A DNA stretch of 64,000 nucleotides from Spiroplasma tabanidicola (GTDB lineage: Bacteria; Bacillota_I; Bacilli_A; Mycoplasmatales; Mycoplasmataceae), in assembly GCF_009730595.1 (NCBI RefSeq), contig NZ_CP046276.1, positions 62,001-126,000 on the forward strand, in the 5' to 3' direction. Positions within the stretch are counted from its first letter, which is position 1. The number at the start of each line of letters is the position of its first letter. The notes beneath the pieces were generated by a model, which saw only the letters and a list, made by a program, of their open reading frames with translations, was not told where the DNA came from and made no database searches. Shown one piece after another: positions 8,227 to 24,233 of this stretch. The position numbers and the translations under genes were made by a program.

Positions 8227-8553
8227 TTATTTTATCCTTTCTTTCTTTTCGCTGAAAGAACTTCCTACATTTTTTAAATCAGTATTTTTATTTACTTTTA
8301 AAGTTGATCGATTATTTCATAAATCGTTACTTCTTTTTAACTGATCATTATAAACTTTTTCATCAATAGCTAGTTTTTTCATATTTTCTTCTAAAAGCTG
8401 AAAATATTTAACGCCCATTATTAGAAAATGATAATCTTCAATAGTTTTAGAACAAATATTACAAATAGTGTTTTTAGTTAAGAAATAATCATTTTTTTCG
8501 TTATTATTTACATTAATTTCTGTAGATGTAAAACCGTGCTCACAATTATTCAT
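8227..8553 (-). CDS. small Cys/His-rich protein with C-terminal TLKVNK tag (copy A)
   Basis: 108 residues, extended past a TGA codon. The N-terminus has CEHGF and, about 30 residues later, ICNICSK, which could bind one zinc ion. A helical middle part follows (YFQLLEENMKKLAIDE). The last 26 residues begin with STLKVNKNTDLKNV, the motif shared with four other proteins of this segment. The gene lies just downstream of the ArdC-like gene and is followed with a 1-base gap by the truncated gene at 8225. Function unknown. The near-identical copy B is at 19814..20140. Confidence 0.75.
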
Positions 8554-8569: not shown

Positions 8570-9597
8570 TTATCTATTTATTTTTTTTTCTTCTCTTTTA
8601 TTTAAAAACTCTGTATTTAGGTTTCTGGTTTTATCTACATTTAAAGATTTTTTATCATTAAATAATTCTTTCACTTGTTCTTTATTTTTGTTTCAATCAC
8701 TAACTATTTCTTTTTGTTGTTCTATAGTAGGTTAGTTAAAGACTTTATTTACACTATTAAATACTTTGTTAAATTCTTTCATAGGGTTCATATCTTTAGT
8801 TGCTTTTGTTCATGAATTAATGTAATTAGAAGCTATTTTTTTAGTTTTTTCATTTTCTATTCCTACATTTTTTCACTTACTCAAGCAAACATTTCAGCTT
8901 GTGTTTCTTTAACACCACGAATGTGTCCTTCGTAACCTAAATTATCTGTATTGTGTTCTAAATATATATGACCAAATTCATGTAGTAAAGTTTGATTTTT
9001 TAAATCCGGATCACTATCAACTGATATATTGATTTTTTTACCATCTGTATAACCAGCTTCTCCTTTTTCGCTAAGACTATAATTAAGGGCAAAAGGTTTA
9101 ATAGATTGTAAGTATTCAACAAGATAATTAAACTCTGGATTTTTTATTTTATTTTGAAAGTTTTCTTCAACAATTTTATTTATCTCTTCTTCTTTTAAAT
9201 TGGTTTGTTTAGCATCAAAAAGGGGTTGTTTTTTATATTTCATATATGTATCTACACATTTATTTGAACCGCACTTTGATGCTATTCCATGTTCTTTACA
9301 CATTGGTAGGGGAGATAAAACATATAAAGCTTTTGCTCCTTTGTTGACATTGACTCCTCCTTTTTGTCATGCGTTATATGTTTTTAACTCAGTTATATTT
9401 TTGGACTGACTCATTAAAAGTAATGCATTTTTAAATGAGTATTTTTGAAAAATATTGGTTTTTTTATTGTATTTAATCAAGTCATTTACTAATAATTCTA
9501 TTGATTCTGGGTTTTTAAAAGCTTCTTCTAATTCTTAATATAATTCTGCTTCAATTTCTTTGACTTCTATATTTTTAATGTTACTAAAATCAATCAT
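8570..9597 (-). pseudogene. ArdC-like protein, copy A, broken
   Basis: Same protein as at 20157..21185. An N-terminal part with NAWQKGGVNVNKGAKAL resembles the ArdC single-stranded-DNA-binding domain. A zincin motif HEFGH (8968..8982), followed by ETQAEMFAW, resembles the ArdC/ImmA metallopeptidase part. Lesions: TAA at codon 21 (shared with copy B), a one-base deletion near 8872 after IENEKT, and TAA replacing Lys in VFN(K)PT near 8735. The C-terminus keeps the TLNVDK tag. The gene is inactive at full length. Confidence 0.8.
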
Positions 9598-9730
9598 CGT
9601 TCAAACCTTTAAATGAATCTGTGAAATTATTTAAGTTTTCTTCATATTCTTTTTTGTTTTTTGAATTTTCTAAAGATATCTCAGCTTTTAAAAAATTAGC
9701 TATTTTTTTATTTTTTTCTTCTTTTTTCAT
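9584..9730 (-). CDS. 48-residue lysine-rich protein (copy A)
   Basis: Starts MKKEEKNKKIANFLKAEI and ends in GLNDDWF (TGA = Trp). The stop codon overlaps the first ATG of the ArdC-like gene, so translation is probably coupled. It is mostly helical and charged. No family is recognised. The copy at 21172..21318 differs by a few residues. Confidence 0.55.
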
Positions 9731-10404: not shown

Positions 10405-10478
10405 TTTATTAATTTCTTGCAAAAACAAGAAATTAATAAATTCATTATAAAAAAACAAAAAAATTTTCCCCGGGGAAA
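10405..10478 (-). promoter_or_regulatory. promoter cassette 1: palindrome, -10 box, leader hairpin
   Basis: Reading leftward: a perfect GC-rich palindrome TTTCCCCGGGGAAA (10465..10478), then TATAAT (10444..10449) about 15 bases further, then a perfect 15-bp stem with 6-base loop (10405..10440), and directly after it AGGAG. The palindrome sits where the -35 box should be, so it is a good operator candidate. The hairpin abuts the ribosome binding site. The cassette recurs at 11087, 21993 and 22676. Confidence 0.6.
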
Positions 10479-10479
10479 G

Positions 10480-10505
10480 AAAAAACCACGTAAGCGGTTT
10501 TTTAA
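10480..10505 (-). terminator. rho-independent terminator
   Basis: On the minus strand AAAACCGC and a GTGGTTTT-type arm pair around a short loop and continue into T6. It overlaps the stop codon (10502) of the fragment of the heptad-repeat protein and lies just before promoter cassette 1. Confidence 0.7.
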
Positions 10506-10623
10506 GCATCAAAAATTCTATCATTTTCATCTGAATCTAAAAATCTTTTAATTTTCATATTAATATCATGGGCTATGCTTTTCAAACTTCTTTTCGTCTT
10601 TTGTTTGTTTCTTCTTTTTTCAT
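10502..10623 (-). pseudogene. remnant of the heptad-repeat protein (copy A)
   Basis: A short ORF starts MKKEETNKRRKEVWK, then jumps frame to SIAHDINMKIKRFLDSDEND and ends IFDA. Both parts match the start and end of the 129-residue protein at 11185..11574 with the middle deleted. It is a second, collapsed copy of that gene. The same remnant is at 22091..22212. Confidence 0.7.
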
Positions 10624-10624
10624 C

Positions 10625-11083
10625 TTAAATGTCTTTTTTCTTATTTTTTTCATTTTGTTTTTCTATTTTTTTTAAAGCAGCATTTTTATTTACTTTTAAA
10701 GTACTTTTTTCTTTATTCAAATAACTATATTTATCTATTTAGTTTTTCATTTCTTCAAACGAAATTTCTTTTTTTTCTACTTCAAATTGAAAATTAAATA
10801 TCATATCTAAACTTATATCGCCTTGATCTAAATAAAATTCTTTTTTATCAAGATCTGCTATAACAGAAAACACACAATTTTCTATATTGTCATTTTCGTT
10901 AAAATCTTGTTCTAGTTTAATGCCTCTTTCAAAACTTGTATCTTCTTTAAAAGCTTCTTGTATAGTTTTTTTTAAAAAAGGTTCACCATCAAAAAAATTT
11001 CAATAACATTAAACTTGATATTTTTTATTTGGTTAAAATTAGCAGAACAATAGTGCAAAACTCTTTTTTCGATATGTAACCAC
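10625..11083 (-). pseudogene. hypothetical protein with C-terminal TLKVNK tag, broken (copy A)
   Basis: It corresponds to the gene at 22214..22672. The frame is disturbed by an extra base near 11071 and a missing base near 10995, and a TAA after the residues EEMKN (10740) is shared with copy B. After that stop the same frame continues to a C-terminus with STLKVNKNAALKKI, 26 residues from the end. The start codon is uncertain. Function unknown; acidic central part. Confidence 0.6.
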
Positions 11084-11086
11084 TCC

Positions 11087-11160
11087 TTTATTAATTTCTT
11101 GCAAAAACAAGAAATTAATAAATTCATTATAACAAAACAAAAAAATTTTCCCCGGGGAAA
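11087..11160 (-). promoter_or_regulatory. promoter cassette 2: palindrome, -10 box, leader hairpin
   Basis: Same arrangement as cassette 1: palindrome TTTCCCCGGGGAAA at 11147..11160, TATAAT at 11126..11131, perfect 15-bp-stem hairpin at 11087..11122, then AGGAG. It drives the gene at 10625..11083. Confidence 0.6.
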
Positions 11161-11161
11161 G

Positions 11162-11187
11162 AAAAAAACCACATAAGCGGTTTTTTA
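11162..11187 (-). terminator. rho-independent terminator
   Basis: Hairpin with AAAACCGC and a GTGGTTTT arm followed by T residues on the minus strand. It begins inside the stop codon of the 129-residue heptad protein and separates it from promoter cassette 2. Confidence 0.7.
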
Positions 11188-11610: not shown

Positions 11611-12253
11611 TTACTTAATTTTATTAAATTCTTTTTTTATCCCATTAGATATTTTTTTTAATTCAGCCTTTTTATTAATTTTTAAAGTGCTATCATTTTC
11701 TAAAAAATTATCAATATCATTTTTAAGTGCACTCAAATTGTTTTTCGCTATTAAAGCATTTTTCACTTTTTTATTTAAAATAAAGTTTTGTGCTAAAATT
11801 TCTTTATTTTCTTGTGATAGTTTGTTTATTTCTTGTGATAGTTTGTTTGTTTCTTGTGATAGTTTGTTTGTTTCTTTTTCTATTTTTTCTTTTTCTTGTT
11901 CTATTTTGTTTTTTTCTTGTGATAGTTTGTTTTTTTCTTGTGATAGTTTGTTTTTTTCTTGTTCTATTTTTTCTTTTTCTTGTGATACACTAACTATTTT
12001 TTTAGTTTTATTCTCGCTTTCTTGTCTTAATTTTTCATAATTAATTTCAAGTTCTATTATATAGTGTTGATAATTTTCTATTAGTTTTCTATCATTTTTT
12101 AAAGCTTCAAGTTCAGCTAAAGTAATATTTATGTCTGCAAATAAACTATCTTCTTTAGCATTATCTCTTTTTAAGTGTGTTTTGTCTGGAACAATAATAT
12201 TAGTAAGTCTTTTAATATGATATTTAATATGGCCTTTTAAAAAAAATCATACT
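11611..12253 (-). pseudogene. long coiled-coil protein with C-terminal tag, truncated by IS (copy A)
   Basis: Matches the gene at 23199..23991. The visible part reads from HIKYHIKRL to the C-terminus KKEFNKIK and contains a long coiled coil with SQEKNKL and SQETNKL heptads. The C-terminal tag STLKINKKAELKKI begins 26 residues from the end. The 5' part is lost where the IS at 12254 begins. Copy A has 105 more bases (five 21-bp units, 35 residues) of heptad repeats than copy B. Confidence 0.75.
11810..11975. repeat. 21-bp tandem repeats inside the coiled-coil gene
   Basis: Repeated units with TTTCTTGTGATAGTTTGTTT and the variant TTCTTGTTCTATTTTTTC encode SQE(K/T)NKL and EQEKEKI heptads on the minus strand. 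There are five more units here than in the B copy. Confidence 0.8.
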
Positions 12254-13463
12254 TTAAACAGGGAAAAATAAATTCTACACAAGAAAGAGGTGTAGAATTT
12301 TTTATGTCAAAAAATTTAACAATAGAACAATGAGCTGAGATAATTGGAATATATAAAACAAAAGGAATTAAAATAGCTGAACAAGAGTATCGTAAATTTA
12401 AATTAAAAGAAATTAAATTTTCGCAAAATCTTCAAAAAAGAATAAAACAAAAAGCTTATTTATTAGATAATTATGGTATGAAAAGTTTAAAAAGAAAAAA
12501 AGGTTCAGGAAGACATAAAAAGAGAGATGATTCTGATATTCCTGGAATAATTAATGATCTAACAGAAGAACAAAAACGTGAAATAATCTAAGATTGAATA
12601 AAAAACCAAAGAGATAAAAGAGAGAAAGAATCCATTAATAAAATAAAATCATTAAATATTAGTACGAAGGCAAGAATTATATCAATGCATAAAACAACTT
12701 TTTATAAAAAGCAAAAAATTAGAAGTTATAAATACAATAATTTAAAAAGTGAAGTTGTGAAAATCTTAAGTGAGTCTAAGTTTATCTATGGCAGTAGAAA
12801 AATAAGTATATTATTAGAAAAAGAAAAAATATTCATATGCGATAGAACTTTAAGACATTATTTAAAAAGATGAGGTTATATAATCAAAACAAGAATTAAA
12901 AAAAGAAAACAAGAATCGAAAAATATTTATGCTAAATATAAAGACTTAGTTAAACGCAATTATAATCCAAGTATTGATAATATTATTGCGACTGATGTAT
13001 CTTACATACCTGGTTTGGTAGAAGGAAATTATTATTATATATCTGCGGCTATTAGTCATAAAACTAAAAAAATTGAGTCATGATGCTTGTCAAAAAATAA
13101 TAATACACAGTTGGTTGTTGATACTATAACTAAAATTAATAAATCTAATTTTATTCTACATTCAGATCATGGTTCTCAATATTCAAGTAACGAGGTTACT
13201 GAATTAGTAAAACAGATAAATGGCCAAACTTCAATGAGCAGAGTTGGTAATTCCTTAGATAATAGAGAAATTGAATATTTTTTTAGTTGTTTAAAAGGAG
13301 AATATCTAAATCATATTAATACAAGCAAAATGAGCTTCAAAGAAATTTTTAACCATATAGATTGGTATAATAAAAAAAGAATACAAAAAGTTTTAAATTG
13401 AAAAACGCCAGCTAGTGCCTGCGTTAATATTTAAAACTGTAGAATTTATTTTTCCCAGTTTAA
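12254..13463 (+). mobile_element. IS3-family insertion sequence
   Basis: 26-bp terminal inverted repeats at 12254..12279 and 13438..13463 match except for one base (TTAAAC(A/T)GGGAAAAATAAATTC..). It is 1,210 bp and contains a single transposase gene with one nonsense codon. It joins the truncated copy A segment on its left to a lipoprotein fragment on its right, so recombination at this IS probably caused the junction. Confidence 0.9.
12304..13434 (+). pseudogene. IS3-family transposase, one nonsense codon
   Basis: 376 codons from ATG 12304, broken only by TAA at codon 96 (12589). The N-terminal part is a helix-turn-helix (MSKNLTIEQWAEIIGIY). The C-terminal part is a DDE integrase core: Asp in IATDVSYIPG, Asp in LHSDHGSQYS and Glu in NREIEYFFS. 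The sequence ends on the terminal inverted repeat. The active-site residues are intact, so the copy could be recent apart from the stop. Confidence 0.9.
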
Positions 13464-14188: not shown

Positions 14189-15444
14189 TGAACTTGTCAA
14201 TTAAAATTGACATTAAAAAGATACTTTCTCCATACGAAATTCGTATGGAGTTTTTTTATACTTTAATGAAGGTCTTACGTAATTATAAAACTCAATATAA
14301 TCAGAAATTACATTATATATATTAGAATAATTTAGCTCACTTACTTTATAAGTATAAATACACTCGTTTTTTAAAGTTCAAAAAAACGATTCGTATGCAC
14401 CGTTATTAGGAGAATTTCCTCTTCTCGACATAGAAATCTTTATATTATTAGAATTACATAAATATTTTCAAGTCTTGTTTGTGTATGGCCAACCTTGATC
14501 AGAATGAATAAGTTTTGGTTTACCTTTTTTTGTGATTGCAGGTTTTAAATTTGTATGGCAAAGTTCATTATCAGGTTTTTTAGAAAGTTTTCAATCTACT
14601 ATTTCTGAATTGTATAAGTCTTTAATGGCTGATAAATAAACCATCCCTGAACTTGTTTTAATGTAAGTAACATCTGTAACCCATTTTTCATTTAAGTTAT
14701 TTGCTTTAAAATTTCTGTTTAAAATATTTTTAAATCTTAATGGACCTGATTTATCATAATCGGGTACTCTTTTCTTTTTGACTGCCTTAATGCCTAATAT
14801 TTTCATATATCTGTATAAAACCCAAGGTTTTAAGTTCATTTTAAAATACTTATTTAACATGAGTGTAATCATATTGTAGCCATAACGTTTTTAAAAAGAT
14901 TATGTATATAAATGATTTTGTTAGCAATTTTTGTATCATAGTTTTTGTATTTAGGTTTACCTGTTTTTAATCATTTTAAATAACCATATCTTGATACTCC
15001 TAAGTATTTACAAACTATTTTTAATGAAAAACACTTTTTCTCATTAAAAATAGCGAAGTACTTTTCCTTAACAGTCTTCGCCAAATGCTTTTTTAAAGCG
15101 CGCTATAATTTTAACGCTTCTCTCAATTCTTCTAAACTCATATCATCAGGATCTTTAAATAACCAATCATGAGATTTGAATTTCTTAATATTACTTTTAG
15201 CTTGAACTCCATTACCTCATTCTAAAGCACCTTCACCTTCAGTTCTTATTTCATGTTTTTATCTCTTAATAGTACTGGTACTTAAATTAAATTTTACTGC
15301 AGTATTAATTATTCCAACTTCTTTTGCCTCATTAACTATGTTAATTTTTTCTTGTTTTGATCATTGTTTTGCCGTATAAAAAGAACACCTTTCAATTAAA
15401 TTTTAACAATAAAAGTACTTTTTTACTGTCAATTTTATTTTAGA
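14189..15444 (-). mobile_element. IS3-family insertion sequence, copy 1 (minus)
   Basis: The ends match those of the copy at 24234..25488: one end reads TGAACTTGTCAATTAAAATT and the other carries AAAATTGACAGTAAAAAAGT when read inward. The element is about 1,255 bp. Its transposase 5' end faces right, toward the accessory genes. It cuts off the 3' end of the large surface protein gene. Exact borders are uncertain by a few bases because they are inferred from where the two copies stop matching. Confidence 0.85.
14213..15373 (-). pseudogene. IS3-family transposase, multiple lesions
   Basis: Homologous to the gene at 24302. The start codon is ACG instead of ATG. A Trp codon TGA has become TAA (in STIKR(W)KHE), another TAG interrupts the helix before RALKKHLAK, and the frame shifts near 14880. 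The C-terminal half is intact and keeps the DDE residues in WVTDVTYI, IHSDQGWPY and GAYESFFW. It is inactive. Confidence 0.85.
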
Positions 15445-17940
15445 TGTTCATATGATATCTTTTTTTACTTTTTCTTGAATTTTTAACTTATATTCTTCTG
15501 AAGTAGAAGTTTGAAAACCAAATTTTAAAGTATGTACATTTAAGTCTTTTATGTCATATCTTTTATCTGGACTTGGATCAGAAGTAGCTTTATTTTGTCT
15601 AATGTCACTAACATAATTTCTTCAATAAGCTATAACACCTTCGTAAGATAATTTCATAAAATCTTCACTATTAGCATTATTTCAACCTTTATAATTAATC
15701 ATATAATTTCTTAAATGATTTCCGTGTGAAGTAGATCAATAACTAGAGATAAGATTTCTATCTTGATTAATTTCGTTTATGTCTTCTATAAAATCTCCAT
15801 ATTTTTTATTAACATACATAAACTTTTGCAAAAAGAAAGGCGGATTTTTTTTATCATTTAAATCTTTATTTGTTTTTGTTTCAATAACAAAATGATATAA
15901 ACCTTCATATGTTTGTATAGTTGTGTCATTTTTATTTACTTTATAAACATTTTTATCATTTTCAACAGATGTTTCTAAATTTGTATCTATTTTTCATCTA
16001 GAAACTGAATTAAAAGTTTCATTATTTCACGAATTAGAAAAACCAACTCCACCAACTTCGCTAGCTAAAGCTATGTAACCTTGTTCATAATCATTTTTGT
16101 TTTTTGAATCTATTTTGTAATTATCACTACTTACAGGGTCTAATTCAAAACTAACATCTTTTTTTGATGGTTTATTAACTCAAATTAATTGTTCTCTTGT
16201 TCCTGTTAATGGATTAATTGTTGGGTCATAATTTGGGTTATCTTCTTTATCTCCAGTTACTTTATTTGTAATAGTAGGGGATGTTAGTTTTTCAAAATCT
16301 GGATTATTTGAATTTCAATTCATCATTGTTAAATCAAGAGTATCCATACTATTTTCTATAATAATAGTTATTGAGTATTTTCCACCTTGATCCCCCAAAA
16401 TATTTGGATTTTTATCATGAACAATTAAAATTTCATAACTTGTTGAATTTGTTTTATCAATTTGTCCATCGTCAAACTTAACCGGAAGATGTTCTAAAGT
16501 ATAAGAATAAAAACCATTATATCCATTAAGTTGTTGACCATTAATAGAGATGTGATCATAATCCTTAGAATTTGGGTCAGTTTTCTTTTCTGCAAAACTT
16601 AAACCTACTGTTGTGTGAAATTTTATTTTTCCACCGTTATAACTACTAGATAAACCACCACCAGAATTAATAACTTCTTCTTTATCTTGAACAACAGTTA
16701 TTCCATCTCTATCAATAATGTTTCCTGGAGACCATGTAATTCTTTGTGCTATATTTTTATTTCAAAAATCCGCAGAAAGACTAAAATCTATATAAGTTTT
16801 AAAAGTTCATTTTTCTTGTCTTATTTGTTGATAATCCTTAGTGTTAAAAGTAAATTGTGTTAGAGCATATGGTTTATTTCCATTGTCATCTCAAGAACTT
16901 TGTTTAGGAATTGTTATTTCTAAACTCGTTTTTCCACCAGAATAGCTATTATATAAATAATCTAAAATATATCTTTGACCATCAAAACAATTTACTATTC
17001 TATTTTCAACTTCTTCTTTGACTTTTTGATAAACAGAAGAATCGTTAATATTTGTAGTTGTTGAACTTGAAACTTTTATGTGACGAGCTTCAACTCCGTT
17101 TTTATCATAATTATCAATTTTTCCTTTTCCTAAATAATTAGTATTGTTGTTTAATTTATTAAAATAATCGCCTCATTTAAATGTAGAATATAAATCTATT
17201 TGTTCATTTCTAAAAGATAAAAAGCAAGCATGATTATTACCAGAATTGCTTCAATTTATATATCCATACAAAGAAATTGTAAAAATTATTCTATTCCCAG
17301 ATTCATGAATATATAATTCATATCACAATGTTTCTTTATCGTGGTCTGGTTCTCTTCTTAAATAACCAGAAGATATTGATCTACCTATATCTGATTTTTT
17401 TATATTATAACTTTCATTATATAAAGGTGGATCAAAACCATTAGCTTTATTATTTTTAGCATCTACCGGCTTATGAAATCATCCCCAACCAATAGCGCCG
17501 TCTCAAAAATTATAAGTATAATCAAATTTAATACTTACTGAATTATAATTTCTTCAAAAATCATCTTTGTTATAACTATATTTACTATATTCAAAACTAT
17601 ATACATCAAAACTTACACTTTGTGTTTGGAGTTTAGGTTGTGATCAAAACGATTGTCCATAGTTATAACTAAATCAATATTTTCCGACAGGATCTACACT
17701 CTCTTTGTAATCAGTTCTATCAATATATATTCATTTTGCCTTGTCGCTATTAAATCCTGTATCATGAACCGTTGGATAAAATCCTCCTTCAGTAGAAATT
17801 TTATTAGTTATGCTATTAGTTTTTTGTTTTTCAAAATCTAGATTGTTCAAATTTTTGTTCTGTCTGAAAAAAATAAACAATATAATAAAACTTGTAATAA
17901 ACAAAAAACTAATAATTATTAAATTTTTGTATTTTTTCAT
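15403..17940 (-). CDS. large membrane-anchored surface protein of the accessory block, 3' end replaced by IS
   Basis: 845 residues when TGA is read as Trp, with no other stop. AGGGGG precedes ATG 17940. The N-terminus KKYKNLIIISFLFITSFI, extending to LFIFF, is a single hydrophobic segment with no cleavage or lipobox Cys, so a signal anchor is likely. The rest is predicted outside the cell and is rich in Trp, Tyr, Asn and Gly, with alternating strands (for example FWDGAIGWGWFHK, SLSADFWNKN). No family is recognised. The last codons are IS DNA: the natural C-terminus was lost when the IS inserted at about 15444. It could be an adhesin of a plasmid or conjugative element. Confidence 0.65.
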
Positions 17941-17984: not shown

Positions 17985-18012
17985 AAAAAAGAAGTTTTAA
18001 AAACTTCTTTTA
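17985..18012 (-). terminator. rho-independent terminator
   Basis: AAAAGAAGTTTT and AAAACTTCTTTT form a near-perfect stem with a T run on the minus strand, directly after the small lipoprotein gene. Confidence 0.8.
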
Positions 18013-18468
18013 TTTTGAATATTTTTCTATCATTTTATCAAAATCGTTTTTTAATTGCTCATAAACTTCTGGGCTTTCTTCTTTAAGATCTTTAACTGCA
18101 TCTTTAAGTGATTTTAAAAATTCTTCTTTAGAATTTAGTGGAATAATTGTTTGATTTTCTGGTAATTTGCTAGCATCTATTTTGCATATTTTGTAAGCAG
18201 ACTCACTCAAATAAATTCACATTTTATTACATTCTACTCTCTGCTCAAAAGTTGGTTCGCCATCTACTACGATTTTTTCTAGTGGTACATATTTATCTAA
18301 CATTTCTTTATGTTTAGCTACTAATTCATCTAAACTAAGTTCTGGTTCTGAAGTTTCGTTCCCGCTATCACTATCTTTTTTTGTATCATCGTTACCGCAC
18401 GCAACAGCAACACTGCTTGAGGTAGCAACCATTCCCATTGCTCCTAATAAACTTAATAATTTCTTCAT
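18010..18468 (-). CDS. small lipoprotein
   Basis: 152 residues through one TGA codon. AAAGGAG precedes the ATG. The signal peptide is the standard cassette MKKLLSLLGAMGMVATSSS with lipobox VAVAC. The mature part is acidic and helical (ELSLDELVAKHKEMLDKY .. EEFLKSLKDAVKDLKEE) and lacks the repeat modules of the chromosomal lipoproteins. It is transcribed toward the large surface protein, but a terminator separates them. It is probably anchored to the outer membrane face. Function unknown. Confidence 0.8.
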
Positions 18469-18801: not shown

Positions 18802-19056
18802 CTATAAATTTAAATCATCATAAATTTTAATAAAATTTTCAATTTCAGCTTTATCTTTTAAAAGTTTAAAGTTTAAAAAAAAATAAAAAAACAATATAAA
18901 TAAATATCATAAATAATTAAAATTTGATAATTTTTTATTTTCAATTAAAAATTTTAAATCAAATGTAAAAAAGTATAAAAGAAAAAACACCATCATAAAT
19001 AAATTGAATATCCAACAAAATAATTGTCTATTTTGTTCTTTTTTTAATTTTTCCAT
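18802..19056 (-). CDS. small protein with two membrane segments
   Basis: 84 residues through TGA codons, start MEKLKKEQNRQLF behind AAGGAG. Two hydrophobic stretches, FNLFMMVFFLLYFF and WYLFILFFYFFLNF, are separated by a lysine-containing loop. The C-terminal tail is charged (KDKAEIENFIKIYDD). It is the last gene of the minus-strand run of copy B and has no counterpart in copy A. Function unknown. The opposite strand also shows an open frame here, but it lacks a ribosome binding site. Confidence 0.65.
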
Positions 19057-19103
19057 ATTTGAATCTCCTTAGTAAAAAAGATATCACAAAAGTGCAGGGA
19101 AAT

Positions 19104-19131
19104 AAAAAAACAGAAATAAATCTGTTTTTTT
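19104..19131 (-). terminator. rho-independent terminator
   Basis: AAAAACAG and CTGTTTTT pair around AAATAAAT with flanking A and T runs. It lies at the 3' end of the 113-residue gene. Confidence 0.75.
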
Positions 19132-19471
19132 ATTTGGTTTTGCTTTTTCCTTTTACAACCACAAATTCAACTCTATCTTTTATATCTGCTTTTTTATCAA
19201 CTTTTAAAGTGTTTTGTTTTTCAACTAAAGTTTTTTTAATCTCTTTAATAATTTTTTTAGCTTCTTTTAAAGTTTCATAATGAGATTCATAACCTCCAGC
19301 TAAACCTTTAGCAAATTCATATTCAGCTGCAAAATCAGGATCAGGATAAACACCATCATTTTCTTGTAGTTCTTCTTCTAAATTTTCATATTGATTATTA
19401 TAGTACTTATAATCTTTTTTTATTTCTTCTAATTTTAAATTTATAAAATTTTCTAAATCTGTAAACTTCAT
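19130..19471 (-). CDS. acidic coiled-coil protein with C-terminal TLKVDK tag
   Basis: 113 residues. The start MKFTDLENFINLKL overlaps the end of the upstream gene, indicating co-translation. The centre is helical and acidic (NLEEELQENDGVYPDPDF). The last 27 residues begin with NTLKVDKKADIKD and end in a basic tail KGKSKTK. The tag and its position match four other products of this segment. No enzymatic motif is visible. Copy A lacks this gene because of the IS at 6636..8018. Confidence 0.7.
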   Translation of the reverse strand: MKFTDLENFINLKLEEIKKDYKYYNNQYENLEEELQENDGVYPDPDFAAEYEFAKGLAGGYESHYETLKEAKKIIKEIKKTLVEKQNTLKVDKKADIKDRVEFVVVKGKSKTK

Positions 19472-19812
19472 TTTTCTCCTTGTGAATCAACAAAACCAAA
19501 ATATTTATTAATAATTTGTTTATTTTCTTTAACATATTGTTTTAGCTCTTTTTTAAAGATACTTTTTATAAGTTCTATTTTTTTAAAAGAAAGATTTTTT
19601 AAAGGGATACATAAAATATCTTCATTATTATTTTTAAGCACAAAATTTCATCCTAAATCTTTATAAAAAAAATTATTAGTTTTTTCTCTTACGTTATCTA
19701 ACGTTAATCAGACCAAATTTGCTTCAATAATATTGGGAAATTGTTTTTCTATATCTTTTTGAAGTTTTATAACATATTCATTATTATGCAAACAATTAAA
19801 ATACGGTTTCAT
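19453..19812 (-). CDS. hypothetical protein, 119 residues (copy B)
   Basis: Reads MKPYFNCLHNNEYVIKLQKD.. to ..WSLQI with several TGA codons. The ATG lies one base after the stop codon of the Cys-rich protein and its own end overlaps the next gene by 19 bases, so the three genes form a tightly coupled unit. The protein is a mixed alpha/beta sequence without signal peptide or tag. The family is not recognised. The first 69 residues survive in copy A at 8019..8225. Confidence 0.65.
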
Positions 19813-19813
19813 T

Positions 19814-20140
19814 TTATTTATTCCTTTCTTTCTTTTTATTTAAAGAACTTCCTACTTTTTTTAAATCAGCATTTTTATTTACTTTTAAAGTTGATTGATT
19901 GTTTCATAAATCGTTACTTCTTTTTAACTGATCATTGTAAACTTTTTCGTCAATAGCTAGTTCTTTCATATTTTCTTCTAAAAGCTGAAAATATTTAACA
20001 CCCATTATTCGAAAATGATAATCTTCAATAGTTTTAGAACAAATATTACAAATAGTGTTTTTAGTTAAGAAATATTCATTTTTTTCATTATTATTTACAT
20101 TGATTTCTGTAGATGTGAAACCATGCTCACAATTATTCAT
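19814..20140 (-). CDS. small Cys/His-rich protein with C-terminal TLKVNK tag (copy B)
   Basis: 108 residues. CEHGF near the N-terminus and ICNICSK about 30 residues later are possible metal ligands. A helical segment follows. The final 26 residues start STLKVNKNADLKKV and end in KKKERNK. It differs from copy A at a handful of positions, mostly in the tag region, where copy B is closer to the consensus. It sits between the ArdC-like gene and the 119-residue gene. Confidence 0.75.
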
Positions 20141-20156
20141 ATTTTCTCCGCCCGTT

Positions 20157-21185
20157 TTATCTATTTATTTTTTTTTCTTCTTTTTTATTTAAAAACTCTA
20201 TATTTAGGTTTCTGGTTTTATCTACATTTAAAGTTTTTTTATCATTAAATAATTCTTTCACTTGTTCTTTATTTTTGTTTCAATCACTAACTATTTCTTT
20301 TTGTTGTTCTATAGTTGGTTTGTTAAAGACTTTGTTTACACTATTAAATACTTTGTTGAATTCTTTCATAGGGTTCATATCTTTAGTTTCTTTTGTTCAT
20401 GAATTAATGTAATTAGAAGCTATTTTTTTAGTTTTTTCATTTTCTATTCCCAACATTTTTTCACTTACTCAAGCAAACATTTCAGCTTGTGTTTCTTTAA
20501 CACCGCGAATGTGTCCTTCGTAACCTAAATTATCTGTATTGTGTTCTAAATATATATGACCAAATTCATGTAGTAAAGTTTGATTTTTTAAATCCGGATC
20601 ACTATCAACTGATATATTGATTTTTTTACCGTCTGTGTATCCAGCTTCTCCTTTTTCGCTAAGACTATAATTAAGGGCAAAAGGTTTAATAGATTGTAAG
20701 TATTCAACAAGATAATTAAACTCTGGATTTTTTATTTTATTTTGAAAGTTTTCTTCAACAATTTTATTTATCTCTTCTTCTTTTAAATTGGTTTGTTTAG
20801 CATCAAAAAGGGGTTGTTTTTTATATTTCATATATGTATCTACACATTTATTTGAACCGCACTTTGATGCTATTCCATGTTCTTTACACATTGGTAGGGG
20901 AGATAAAACATATAAAGCTTTTGCTCCTTTGTTGACATTGACTCCTCCTTTTTGTCATGCGTTATATGTTTTTAACTCAGTTATATTTTTGGACTGACTC
21001 ATTAAAAGTAATGCATTTTTAAATGAGTATTTTTGAAAAATATTGGTTTTTTTATTGTATTTAATCAAGTCATTTACTAATAATTCTATTGATTCTGGGT
21101 TTTTAAAAGCTTCTTCTAATTCTTAATATAATTCTGCTTCAATTTCTTTGACTTCTATATTTTTAATGTTACTAAAATCAATCAT
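20157..21185 (-). pseudogene. ArdC-like protein with zincin motif; in-frame TAA at codon 21
   Basis: 343 codons from ATG 21185 to TAA 20157, broken only by TAA at codon 21 (21123..21125). The N-terminal part with FKNALLLMSQ, NAWQKGGVNVNKGAKAL resembles the ArdC ssDNA-binding domain. The zinc peptidase part has LLHEFGHIYLEH (HExxH at 20556..20570) and the third-ligand region ETQAEMFAWV. The C-terminus carries TLNVDKTRNLN 26 residues from the end. ArdC proteins are plasmid antirestriction factors known to travel into recipients with the DNA strand. Either the stop abolishes expression, or translation restarts downstream at a non-ATG codon; the sequence does not decide. Confidence 0.75.
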
Positions 21186-21318
21186 CGTTCAAACCTTTAA
21201 ATGAATCTGTGAAATTATTTAAGTTTTCTTCATACACTTTTTTGTTTTTTGAATTTTCTAAAGATATCTCAGCTTTTAAAAAATTAGCTATTTTTTTATT
21301 TTTTTCTTCTTTTTTCAT
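21172..21318 (-). CDS. 48-residue lysine-rich protein (copy B)
   Basis: MKKEEKNKKIANFLKAEI .. GLNDDWF, with the stop overlapping the ATG of the ArdC-like gene. The overlap suggests coupling, so it may act as a leader ORF for it. Helical, charged, unrecognised. Confidence 0.55.
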
Positions 21319-21394
21319 CTTAAATTTCTCTTTTCTTATTTTTTTCTTTTCTTTACTTTAATAATTATTTCTACACCAAAAATTTAAGTTTTTT

Positions 21395-21808
21395 TTACAA
21401 TAAATTATAAACTTTTAATTTTTTAAGAAAGGTGTTGTTATAGATATCATTACCTATTTTTTCTAGTGAAGAAAGAGTGTATTCAACTATGTTTAAATAA
21501 CTTTCATAAAAATTATGATCATCTTCTTTTGAAGCAATTCTTAAAATCATTTCTTTTTTTCTTGAATCTAAATAAAAAAAATTTTTTATATAACAAATAA
21601 ATATCTCTTTAAAAATTTTAGAATTTAAAAATTCCGTATATATTATTGCAACTAAAAAATTATTAGAATAGTTATTATTTAATTTGTTTTCTTTATCAAA
21701 AAATGAATACATTTTATTTCTTTCTTTATCATTTATAAAATCTTCAATAAACATTATTTTTATGTCACTATATAAACTTACAACATCAGATAATTTAATT
21801 CTACTCAT
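21395..21808 (-). CDS. hypothetical protein, 137 residues (copy B)
   Basis: Identical to the product at 9807..10220. Predicted helical, cytoplasmic, with SRKKEMILRIASKEDD in the middle and NTFLKKLKVYNLL at the end. No tag, no membrane segment, no known motif. The perfect identity between copies, while neighbouring genes differ, suggests a recent duplication or gene conversion. Confidence 0.65.
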   Translation of the reverse strand: MSRIKLSDVVSLYSDIKIMFIEDFINDKERNKMYSFFDKENKLNNNYSNNFLVAIIYTEFLNSKIFKEIFICYIKNFFYLDSRKKEMILRIASKEDDHNFYESYLNIVEYTLSSLEKIGNDIYNNTFLKKLKVYNLL

Positions 21809-21824
21809 ATGTAATTCGTTTCAT

Positions 21825-21983
21825 TTATAAATTATTTAAAACTATTTTAACAACATATTTTTCCCACTCATATAAAGCTTTTTTAAAAAATAATTCTTAA
21901 TAAAATATGATCGATTTCAATTTGGTTCTTATACAAAATTATATTTTCAAAAGTCTTTATATCATAAATATTTTTCGATATGT
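21825..21983 (-). pseudogene. short broken ORF behind promoter cassette (copy B)
   Basis: Same text and same frame break as at 10237..10395; no convincing start codon. Confidence 0.35.
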
Positions 21984-21992
21984 AACCACTCC

Positions 21993-22066
21993 TTTATTAA
22001 TTTCTTGCAAAAACAAGAAATTAATAAATTCATTATAACAAAACAAAAAAATTTTCCCCGGGGAAA
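21993..22066 (-). promoter_or_regulatory. promoter cassette 3: palindrome, -10 box, leader hairpin
   Basis: Palindrome TTTCCCCGGGGAAA at 22053..22066, TATAAT at 22032..22037, perfect 15-bp-stem hairpin at 21993..22028, then AGGAG. It drives the run of 137-residue, 48-residue, ArdC-like and tagged genes. Confidence 0.6.
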
Positions 22067-22067
22067 G

Positions 22068-22094
22068 AAAAAAACCACGTAAGCGGTTTTTTAA
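22068..22094 (-). terminator. rho-independent terminator
   Basis: Hairpin with AAAACCGC and GTGGTTTT arms and a T run on the minus strand, overlapping the end of the heptad-protein remnant. Confidence 0.7.
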
Positions 22095-22212
22095 GCATCA
22101 AAAATTCTATCATTTTCATCTGAATCTAAAAATCTTTTAATTTTCATATTAATATCATGGGCTATGCTTTTCAAACTTCTTTTCGTCTTTTGTTTGTTTC
22201 TTCTTTTTTCAT
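22091..22212 (-). pseudogene. remnant of the heptad-repeat protein (copy B)
   Basis: Fused first and last parts of the gene at 22773..23162 with a frame change between, as in copy A at 10502..10623. It brings a second terminator and promoter cassette, so an internal tandem duplication of the cassette must predate the large duplication. Confidence 0.7.
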
Positions 22213-22213
22213 C

Positions 22214-22672
22214 TTAAATGTCTTTTTTCTTATTTTTTTCATTTTGTTTTTCTATTTTTTTTAAAGCAGCATTTTTATTTACTTTTAAAGTACTTTTTTC
22301 TTTATTCAAATAACTATATTTATCTATTTAGTTTTTCATTTCTTCAAACGAAATTTCTTTTTTTTCTGCTTCAAATTGAAAATTAAATATCATATCTAAA
22401 CTTATATCGCCTTGATCTAAATAAAATTTTTTTTTATCAAGATCTGCTATAACAGAAAACACACAATTTTCTATATTGTCATTTTCGTTAAAATCTTGTT
22501 CTAGTTTAATGCCTCTTTCAAAACTTGTATCTTTTTTAAAAGCTTCTTGTATAGTTTTGTTTAAAAAAGGTTCCCCATCAAAAAAATTCTCAATAACATT
22601 AAACTTGATATTTTTTATTTGGTTAAAATTAGCAGAACAATAGTGCAAAACTCTTTTTTGATATGTAACCAC
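22214..22672 (-). pseudogene. hypothetical protein with C-terminal TLKVNK tag, internal TAA (copy B)
   Basis: An open frame from about GTG 22672 reads VTYQKRVLHYCSANFNQI .. SFEEMKN, then TAA (22328..22330), then continues in the same frame for 37 residues to a normal end with STLKVNKNAALKKI 26 residues before the stop at 22214. The same stop is in copy A. The start codon is unclear: GTG is too close to AGGAG and no ATG is near. The protein is acidic (QDFNENDNIENCVF) and unrecognised. The intact tag behind the stop suggests recent inactivation or read-through. Confidence 0.6.
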
Positions 22673-22675
22673 TCC

Positions 22676-22748
22676 TTTATTAATTTCTTGCAAAAACAAG
22701 AAATTAATAAATTCATTATAACAAAACAAAAAATTTTCCCCGGGGAAA
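22676..22748 (-). promoter_or_regulatory. promoter cassette 4: palindrome, -10 box, leader hairpin
   Basis: Palindrome TTTCCCCGGGGAAA at 22735..22748, TATAAT at 22715..22720, perfect hairpin at 22676..22711, then AGGAG in front of the gene at 22214..22672. Confidence 0.6.
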
Positions 22749-22749
22749 G

Positions 22750-22775
22750 AAAAAAACCACATAAGCGGTTTTTTA
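22750..22775 (-). terminator. rho-independent terminator
   Basis: AAAACCGC and GTGGTTTT arms with a T run on the minus strand, overlapping the stop codon of the heptad protein. Confidence 0.7.
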
Positions 22776-23162
22776 AGCATCAAAAATTCTATCTTTTTCA
22801 TCTGAATCTAAAAATCTTTTAATTTTCATATTAATATCATGAGCTATGCCTTTAAATTCTTGTTCTATATAATCTCACTTTTCTAATAATATTATAGTTT
22901 CTTTCCAAACTTCTTTTCGTCTTTTGTTTGTTTCTTCACTGCTTTTATTTATTTCTTCATTTCATTTATTTATTTCTTCACTTCTTTTATTTATTTCTTC
23001 ATTTCATTTATTTATTTCTTCATTTCATTTATTTGTTTCTTCACTTCTTTTATTTATTTCTTCATTTCATTTCAAAGCTTGAATAAATTTTTTATTTGTT
23101 TCTTCAATTTTTTTATTATTTTTTTTCATTCATTTTTTTTGCTCTTTTAAAAAATCATCCAT
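22773..23162 (-). CDS. coiled-coil protein with tandem heptads (copy B)
   Basis: 129 residues from ATG 23162 (MDDFLKEQKKWMKKNNKK). The central heptads are mixed: RSEETNK, WNEEINK, RSEEINK, where the Trp is encoded by TGA. Ends KGIAHDINMKIKRFL .. IFDA. Compared with copy A the overall length is the same but the repeat units differ, showing independent repeat exchange. Confidence 0.7.
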
Positions 23163-23198
23163 AATTTAAATTTCCTTTTTTTAATTTTAACATTTTAA

Positions 23199-23991
23199 TT
23201 ACTTAATTTTATTAAATTCTTTTTTTATCCCGTTAGATATTTTTTTTAATTTAGCCTTTTTATTAATTTTTAAAGTGCTATCATTTTCTAAAAAATTATC
23301 AATATCGTTTTTAAGTGCACTTAAATTGTTTTTTGCAATTAAAGCGTTTTTCACTTTTTTATTTAAAATAAAGTTTTCTGCTAAAACTTCTTTATTTTCT
23401 TGTTCTATTTTTTCTTTTTCTTGTGATAGTTTGTTTTTTTCTTGTTCTATTTTTTCTTTTTCTTGTGATACACTAACTATTTTTTTAGTTTTATTCTCAC
23501 TTTCTTGTCTTAATTTTTCATAATTAATTTCAAGTTCTATTATATAGTGTTGATAATTTTCTATTACTTTTCTATTATTTCTTAAAGCTTCAAGTTCAGC
23601 TAAAGTAATATTTATGTCAGCAAACAAACTATCTTCTTTAGCATAATTTCTACTTAAATGAGTTTTGTTTGGCACAATAATATCATTAAGTTTTTTAATA
23701 TGATATTTAATATGATTTTTTAAAGAAATATCATATTTAGAGATAACTTTCTCAATAGTTAAAATAATTTCTTGAGCTCTATCTCTGGGTCAAGTGCTAA
23801 TTTTGTTATTGCTAAAATCTATAAAAGCCTTTTTTATCAAATTTATTATGTATTTCTTTATATTCTATTAATAACTTAGTAACAAAAGTCATATCTTCTT
23901 CACTTGATAGATCTTTTGATTCTTTTTCGATTCCTTTTTTAACTTCTTTAAATAGCTTACTATCTGATTTATTCTTTTTTTTCGTCTTCAA
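23199..23991 (-). pseudogene. long coiled-coil protein with C-terminal tag, one frameshift (copy B)
   Basis: The 5' part (TTG 23991, MKTKKKNKSDSKLFKEV.. to FDKKGFYRF) ends at TAG 23812. One base of shift near 23825 continues into IDFSNNKISTWPRDRAQEII and on to TAA 23199. The second half has a long coiled coil (QEKEKIEQEKNKLSQEKEKI) and ends with STLKINKKAKLKKI starting 26 residues before the stop. With the frame restored it would be about 264 residues. Coiled-coil C-terminal halves are common in mobilisation proteins, but no relaxase motif is visible. Confidence 0.65.
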
Positions 23992-24175
23992 CAGCCCCCA
24001 ATATACTTTCTACTAATACAAATGCTTTAAACATAAACATTTGCATATCAGCACTATTTAATTCATTTTTATGTTTTTCTAAAAATTTTTCTAGATTTCC
24101 TTCTACAGAAATATCAAGTTCATAATTTTTGTGTTTAACTAAAAATATATTTATATCTTGTCTATCTTTTTTCAT
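23969..24175 (-). CDS. hypothetical protein, 68 residues
   Basis: Starts MKKDRQDINIFLVKHKNYEL behind GAGAGGA and ends GAVEDEKKE. Its last bases overlap the TTG start of the coiled-coil gene. Helical and charged; no family recognised. It is the first gene of the minus-strand run, directly after the IS border at 24234. Confidence 0.55.
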   Translation of the reverse strand: MKKDRQDINIFLVKHKNYELDISVEGNLEKFLEKHKNELNSADMQMFMFKAFVLVESILGAVEDEKKE

Positions 24176-24233
24176 ATTTATTTCCTCTCTAAATAACAAA
24201 ATTATATCAAATAAAAAAAACCATTTTTGAATA

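What the first reader, a model, noticed from the sequence alone, without database searches (positions are those of the whole stretch)
18802..23991. Five unrelated proteins of the accessory segment share a C-terminal tag
The coiled-coil protein (23199), the acidic protein behind promoter cassette 4 (22214), the ArdC-like protein (20157), the Cys-rich protein (19814) and the 113-residue protein (19130) have nothing else in common, yet all end alike. A motif with consensus (S/N/K)TL(K/N)(V/I)(N/D)K-x-x-x-(L/I)(K/N) starts exactly 26 residues (27 in one) before the stop and is followed by a lysine-rich tail. Copy A repeats this for four of them. The fixed distance and basic tail look like a sorting or export signal. 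ArdC proteins are known to be carried into recipient cells during conjugation, so a C-terminal recruitment signal for a type IV secretion channel is one possible reading. Others are a shared partner-binding or degradation tag. I know of no description of this tag.
Basis: partly seen in the sequence, partly recalled or inferred. Interest (0 to 1): 0.86.

Follow-up and report, generated by a model that had tools for sequence, protein, structure and literature searches.

The report
Shared C-terminal tag of conjugative-plasmid proteins
Several otherwise unrelated proteins in a relic of a transferable Spiroplasma plasmid end with the same short basic tag; the tag also occurs on five proteins of an intact conjugative plasmid in another Spiroplasma species and was found nowhere else I could search, so it is probably a docking signal of that plasmid family, perhaps one that sends the proteins into the recipient cell.

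Summary
Four unrelated copy-B proteins end in (S/K/N)TL(K/N)(V/I)(N/D)K...., 26-27 residues from the stop. The fifth, the 'acidic' protein, has the tag beyond an in-frame TAA in both copies. Shuffling and real C-termini reject chance. In the own genome the profile hits only the nine window sites.

The new result is the origin. A motif-blind scan of C-termini around conjugation genes found the same tag on five proteins of the 29,239-bp plasmid of Spiroplasma corruscae EC-1 (NZ_CP022536.1). That plasmid has a MobL relaxase, VirD4 and VirB4. It shares part of its gene order with the window, whose 845-aa protein is a 53.6% relative of a plasmid conjugation gene (ICE_Mbov_0399 type). The window segment is therefore a decayed chromosomal relic of such a plasmid. 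No VirD4 or VirB4 was found in its genome. The S. corruscae chromosome and about 30 other mollicute conjugation regions lack the tag.

Best reading: a modular C-terminal docking motif of this plasmid family, most likely recruiting accessory proteins such as ArdC to the conjugation machinery (inferred, about 0.42). Against export: the relaxase lacks the tag, and one tagged protein looks membrane-anchored. I found no earlier description.

The parts
23202..23279 (-). tag of the coiled-coil protein (gene 23199-23840): STLKINKKAKLKKISNGIKKEFNKIK
22217..22294 (-). tag-coding stretch behind the acidic ORF: STLKVNKNAALKKIEKQNEKNKKKDI; separated from ORF 22328-22801 by an in-frame TAA
20160..20237 (-). 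tag of the ArdC-like protein (gene 20157-21068): KTLNVDKTRNLNIEFLNKKEEKKINR
   Evidence: Pfam ArdcN E 2e-5; plasmid homologues align only up to residue 277
19817..19894 (-). tag of the Cys-rich protein (gene 19814-20140): STLKVNKNADLKKVGSSLNKKKERNK
19133..19213 (-). tag of the 113-aa protein (gene 19130-19471): NTLKVDKKADIKDRVEFVVVKGKSKTK
11614..11691 (-). copy A, tag of the coiled-coil protein
10628..10705 (-). copy A, tag-coding stretch behind the acidic ORF (same in-frame TAA upstream)
8573..8650 (-). copy A, tag of the broken ArdC gene
8230..8307 (-). copy A, tag of the Cys-rich protein
15403..17940 (-). Mbov_0399-type conjugation protein, C-terminus lost; 53.6% identical to S. corruscae plasmid protein 21981-25169
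   Evidence: NCBIfam NF045892 E 2e-47; tblastn
18010..18468 (-). lipoprotein, positional counterpart of plasmid 21456-21935
   Evidence: E 1e-13
23969..24199 (-). 76-aa protein, positional counterpart of plasmid 20049-20282
   Evidence: E 2e-4
22773..23162 (-). coiled repeat protein without tag, counterpart of plasmid 20996-21403 by position only
   Evidence: no significant sequence similarity

Best explanation
The tag is a short modular docking motif at the C-terminus of accessory proteins of one family of Spiroplasma conjugative plasmids. Anatomy: extended core STLxVNK, then a hydrophobic position and usually an I/V three residues further on, then a basic tail, with the core 25-27 residues from the end in all but one case. 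Shown: it is real, repeated, in frame, C-terminal and confined to this plasmid type in what could be searched. The window copy is a decayed chromosomal relic of such a plasmid. Inferred: the tag is bound by the plasmid's type IV machinery (coupling protein or an adaptor), so that establishment proteins such as ArdC are carried to, and probably through, the mating channel with the DNA. Separate tagged proteins would then do what one large polyvalent protein does elsewhere.
For: A motif-blind, stop-anchored scan of conjugation regions found the tag on proteins of the S. corruscae plasmid, which encodes MobL relaxase, VirD4, VirB4 and an Mbov_0396 protein. A profile from the four clean window families ranks four plasmid tags first outside the window among 25,716 six-frame segments (E 2e-4 to 2e-3; next 0.0096). 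S. corruscae chromosome: nothing better than E 0.0197. Shared gene order and a 53.6% identical conjugation protein link window and plasmid. Three tagged plasmid genes lie in front of ssb and the relaxase gene, and one window cargo is ArdC, a family known to be transferred in conjugation (PMC5512222). Net charge is +4 to +9, against a mean of +1 for other C-termini; basic C-terminal signals are known for VirB/D4 substrates (PMC10025392). Positive control: the same scan picks out LPXTG sorting signals on an E. faecalis plasmid.
Against: The plasmid relaxase, SSB, topoisomerase and VirD4 have no tag. Tagged protein 12094-13155 begins with a hydrophobic stretch and looks membrane-anchored. The window genome has no VirD4 or VirB4 relative. 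Some 30 other mollicute conjugation regions have no such shared tag, so it is not general. Only one intact element is known to carry it. The cross-species match needs HMMER's bias correction switched off; with it on, the window-only profile did not ring in that genome. No binding or transfer data exist.
Confidence: 0.42

Rival explanations
1. A docking motif that gathers plasmid proteins on a common partner inside the donor (membrane-bound T4SS protein, DNA-processing complex or partition complex), without export.
For: Hydrophobic spacing L-x-V ... hydrophobic-x-x-I/V suits a short binding motif; one tagged protein sits directly behind VirD4 and has a hydrophobic N-terminus; the relaxase is untagged.
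Against: The tagged set includes ArdC, a family whose studied members act in the recipient (PMC5512222).
Confidence: 0.33
2. A degradation or turnover tag that keeps plasmid proteins scarce.
For: C-terminal position and fixed distance to the stop.
Against: The lysine-rich, hydrophilic end does not resemble ssrA-type tags with hydrophobic ends (own knowledge, not tested); host proteases would not explain restriction to one plasmid type.
Confidence: 0.08
3. A gene-end cassette spread by DNA-level copying, with no present function.
For: Plasmid genes 3891 and 4712 share an identical 37-residue tail and similar 3' flanks; coil, acid and Cys tags share codons more often than expected (30 against 20.5 +/- 3.1).
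Against: Across the seven diverged cases codon sharing is as expected from usage (82 against 74 +/- 8, p 0.2) while the residues are kept; the tag is always in frame and C-terminal; it persists in two species on different genes.
Confidence: 0.1
4. A DNA or RNA element at gene ends (operator, terminator or recombination site) that merely happens to be translated.
For: Partial nucleotide similarity in the core.
Against: Codons vary while residues are kept; all distinct cases are in the same frame relative to their gene; 3' flanks differ.
Confidence: 0.04
5. Chance similarity of lysine-rich C-termini in an AT-rich genome.
For: Lysine-rich tails weaken HMMER statistics.
Against: Zero of 5000 shuffles and zero of 20000 real C-terminus sets reach the observed score; independent recurrence on the plasmid.
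Confidence: 0.02

Closest known systems
C-terminal translocation signals of VirB/D4 type IV substrates (VirF, VirE2, MobA)
   Same: short, basic, at the extreme C-terminus, carried by unrelated proteins
   Different: those have an Arg motif or charge clusters without a long consensus (PMC10025392); this tag has a defined STLxVNK core, and the element's own relaxase lacks it
BID domain and XVIPCD
   Same: one shared C-terminal module on many T4SS substrates
   Different: both are much larger folded domains (own knowledge); this is about 27 residues with no Pfam or PHROGs match
Polyvalent proteins with ArdC-N and MPTase domains
   Same: window ArdC has ArdcN above cut-off and a weak MPTase-like match; such proteins are thought to be delivered with element DNA
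   Different: here separate small proteins each carry a tag, instead of many domains in one chain
LPXTG sorting signal
   Same: fixed distance to the C-terminus on unrelated proteins; found by the same scan
   Different: no LPXTG motif, no hydrophobic segment, and mollicutes have no cell wall
Mollicute ICE and plasmid transfer module (Mbov_0395-0399 families)
   Same: the window and the S. corruscae plasmid carry members
   Different: other members of this module scanned here have no shared tag

Membership tests
T4SS C-terminal translocation signal | located at the extreme C-terminus of several unrelated proteins of one element | tested here: met
T4SS C-terminal translocation signal | net positive charge | tested here: met
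   +4 to +9
T4SS C-terminal translocation signal | encoded with a coupling protein | tested here: met
   met on the S. corruscae plasmid; no VirD4 or VirB4 in the window genome, which fits a relic
T4SS C-terminal translocation signal | present on the relaxase, the main substrate | tested here: not met
   MobL ends without the tag
T4SS C-terminal translocation signal | necessary and sufficient for transfer of a fused reporter | not testable with these tools
   needs a mating assay
BID / XVIPCD | match to a described domain family | tested here: not met
   no Pfam or PHROGs family; no solved structure
LPXTG-type sorting | LPXTG motif, hydrophobic segment, basic tail | tested here: not met
   sequences
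ArdC (the tagged cargo) | ArdC-N domain | tested here: met
   PF08401 25.2 bits, cut-off 22.6; the gene has an in-frame TAA near its N-terminus
pSCOR-like conjugative element (window segment) | homologous conjugation gene and shared gene order | tested here: met
   two of five positions are supported by order only

The most novel reading that the evidence does not exclude
This is the first defined modular type IV docking and delivery tag in wall-less bacteria: a roughly 27-residue signal grafted onto the ends of unrelated establishment proteins (ArdC and others), so that each is carried into the recipient with the plasmid DNA, in place of a single polyvalent protein.
Probability: 0.35. Interest if true: 0.82.

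Novelty: new variant of a known kind. Interest (0 to 1): 0.66.

Why it matters
Which proteins a conjugative element sends into the recipient, and how they are selected, is poorly known in wall-less and Gram-positive relatives. A short transplantable tag with a sharp consensus would name the delivered set of a plasmid by sequence alone, and would give a testable docking site on the coupling protein. The motif-blind stop-anchored scan that linked the two loci also recovers LPXTG signals, so it may find other private tags on mobile elements.

Tried and rejected
Window-only profile A1 on 60 family genomes: hit only the window; it missed the S. corruscae plasmid because of bias correction. Coiled-coil and 113-aa proteins as queries in relatives, and coiled-coil and Cys-rich proteins in plasmids: no convincing homologue. 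Only ArdC homologue among relatives: G045, 55% identical but truncated before the tag position. AlphaFold of a plasmid tagged protein and of the Cys-rich protein: mean pLDDT 42.5 and 41.1, not usable, although the plasmid tail is drawn as a helix after the core; no fold search was made on them. Rejected: chance, DNA element, LPXTG-like sorting.

Full report
WHAT IS THERE. The window lies in a 1,284,335-bp single-contig Spiroplasma-type genome, TGA = Trp. On the minus strand of copy B, four complete reading frames end in the described tag: coiled coil (stop 23199), ArdC-like (20157), Cys-rich (19814) and the 113-aa protein (19130). Counted from the residue before TL, the tag has 26 residues (27 in the last). 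Copy A (about 8.2-12.2 kb) repeats it at 11611, 8570 and 8227. The fifth case needs correcting. The acidic frame stops at TAA 22328 (ATG AAA AAC TAA); the tag-coding stretch ending at 22214 follows in the same frame after that stop, in both copies. The ArdC genes also carry an in-frame TAA near the N-terminus in both copies, and copy A's ArdC is broken further on. The segment is therefore partly decayed. Neighbouring small proteins (119, 137, 129 and 84 aa) have no tag, so the tag is selective.

IS IT CHANCE? Stop-anchored ungapped similarity of the five ends sums to 446; the maximum in 5000 shuffles was 274, and in 20000 random sets of five real C-termini from the region also 274. Without the acidic case no shuffle reaches the observed sum either. 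A profile of the tails finds exactly nine places in the whole genome, all in the two copies. These places are also its training rows, so the information is that there is no tenth. The tails are lysine-rich, and a strict leave-one-family-out search with bias correction re-finds only two of the five. I therefore relied on shuffles and on independent recurrence.

WHERE ELSE? ArdC homologues on plasmids of Bacillota align at most up to residue 277 of 303, that is, up to the start of the tag, so the tag is an addition to the domain. No tagged protein of the window has a tagged homologue in 60 family genomes (the Cys-rich protein was searched only in plasmids). VirD4 (PF02534) is present in 22 of 60 family genomes but not in the window's own genome. 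A VirB4 search there was also empty, though the tool warns that an empty answer without a positive control shows little. I then took stretches around VirD4 genes of relatives and asked, without using the motif, which non-homologous neighbours share a C-terminus. Besides the window, one contig stood out: G032:C2, a 29,239-bp contig identified by tblastn as the circular plasmid of Spiroplasma corruscae EC-1, NZ_CP022536.1 (genome paper PMC5597761). I call it pSCOR here for short; the record leaves it unnamed. Its proteins 3891, 4712 and 5627 end STLQVNKNRTFEDIKRSKAIEKKKE(I/L)KK, protein 12094 ends GSLSINKDNKYKQIVKSDKVFASKKLGK, and the coiled-coil protein 20272 carries STLKVDKERSIEDIKKNK... with a longer tail. 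In four of the five the core stands 27 residues from the end.

IS IT THE SAME TAG? A profile built only from the four clean window families, run over 25,716 six-frame segments of held regions with bias correction off, ranks four of these plasmid proteins first outside the window (E 2e-4, 7e-4, 1e-3, 2e-3; next 0.0096). The reverse profile, from plasmid tags alone, ranks the window's acidic tail first (1.5e-4). With the correction on, neither direction is significant; this is the weakest link statistically. Pairwise shuffles give p 0.001 to 0.015 for the best pairs. Independent of the tag, window and plasmid share a block: 77/76-aa protein, tagged coiled coil, repeat coiled protein, lipoprotein, and a large Mbov_0399-type conjugation protein (53.6% over 649 aa; NF045892 E 2e-47), with the ArdC/Cys/113 group inserted between the repeat protein and the lipoprotein in the window. 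Two of these five correspondences (coiled coil, repeat protein) rest on order only. The window segment is best read as a chromosomal relic of a plasmid of this type. In S. corruscae the tag profile hits the plasmid five times at E about 1e-9 or better and its chromosome at no better than 0.0197; the plasmid tags were among that profile's training rows, so again the point is the absence elsewhere.

HOW SPECIFIC? The same scan on about 30 other mollicute conjugation regions and plasmids found no comparable shared tag. As a positive control, on an Enterococcus faecalis pheromone-type plasmid it picked out the three LPXTG surface proteins with scores of 44-67, the range of the window tag (45-71).

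PROTEIN OR DNA? Across seven diverged tags, codons at shared residues agree no more often than codon usage predicts (82 against 74 +/- 8; p 0.2), all tags are in frame, and flanks differ: selection acts on the peptide. Within the window the coil, acid and Cys tags share codons more than expected (30 against 20.5 +/- 3.1), and plasmid genes 3891 and 4712 share an identical 37-residue tail and similar 3' flanks, so gene ends have also been copied at DNA level. The picture is a peptide kept by selection and sometimes grafted onto a new gene.

HOW IT MOST LIKELY WORKS. Shown: a modular C-terminal motif, basic (+4 to +9), with regular hydrophobic positions, private to one conjugative plasmid family in the data searched. 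Inferred: a docking signal for a plasmid-encoded partner. I favour the conjugation machinery because the only intact carrier is a conjugative plasmid, because three tagged genes sit just before ssb and the relaxase gene, and because ArdC is a family shown elsewhere to travel with the DNA (PMC5512222). Basic C-terminal signals are established for VirB/D4 substrates (PMC10025392). Against export: MobL lacks the tag, protein 12094 begins with a hydrophobic segment, and nothing was measured. Recruitment for delivery 0.42, docking without export 0.33. The window copy, with no VirD4 or VirB4 found, is probably no longer in use for transfer.

NOVELTY. No Pfam, PHROGs or PDB entry matches the tag, and the paper searches made here found no description (open-access library only). 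C-terminal T4SS signals are a known kind; a private consensus tag of this sort would be a new variant.

Noticed in passing
window 22020-22110, 22665-22760 and 10420-10510, 11080-11170 (minus strand): Near-identical cassettes of about 90 bases (terminator-like repeat, promoter-like TATAAT, hairpin, ribosome-binding site, GGTTACATATC) recur in front of genes in both copies, some leading into broken frames.
   Followed up: no
window about 9500-9600 and 21080-21190 (minus strand): ArdC of both copies has an in-frame TAA (GAATTATATTAAGAATTAGAAG) between an ATG-started N-terminal piece and the rest, so the intact-looking 303-aa ORF may be translated from an internal start or be a pseudogene.
   Followed up: partly
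L150:31-2133 and L150:18156-19961 (Lactococcus lactis NZ_CP053672.2): The MobQ relaxase and the ArdC-like/ImmA-IrrE protein of this plasmid end alike (GYSPKM and PFTPKL), and the relaxase of an E. faecalis plasmid (L149:32970-34697) ends in PKL; possibly another shared C-terminal signal.
   Followed up: partly
L099:3891-4361 and L099:4712-5167: Two plasmid genes with unrelated bodies share an identical 37-residue end and similar 3' flank, a clear case of recent gene-end grafting.
   Followed up: partly
G045:C2:564864-565490 (L004): The only other ArdC-like relative in the family genomes (55% identity), truncated before the tag position, directly behind a predicted DNA methyltransferase gene.
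   Followed up: partly
G036:C1:275976-276200 (L119): A fragment of the Mbov_0399-like protein with stop codons, perhaps a relic of a similar element in another species.
   Followed up: no
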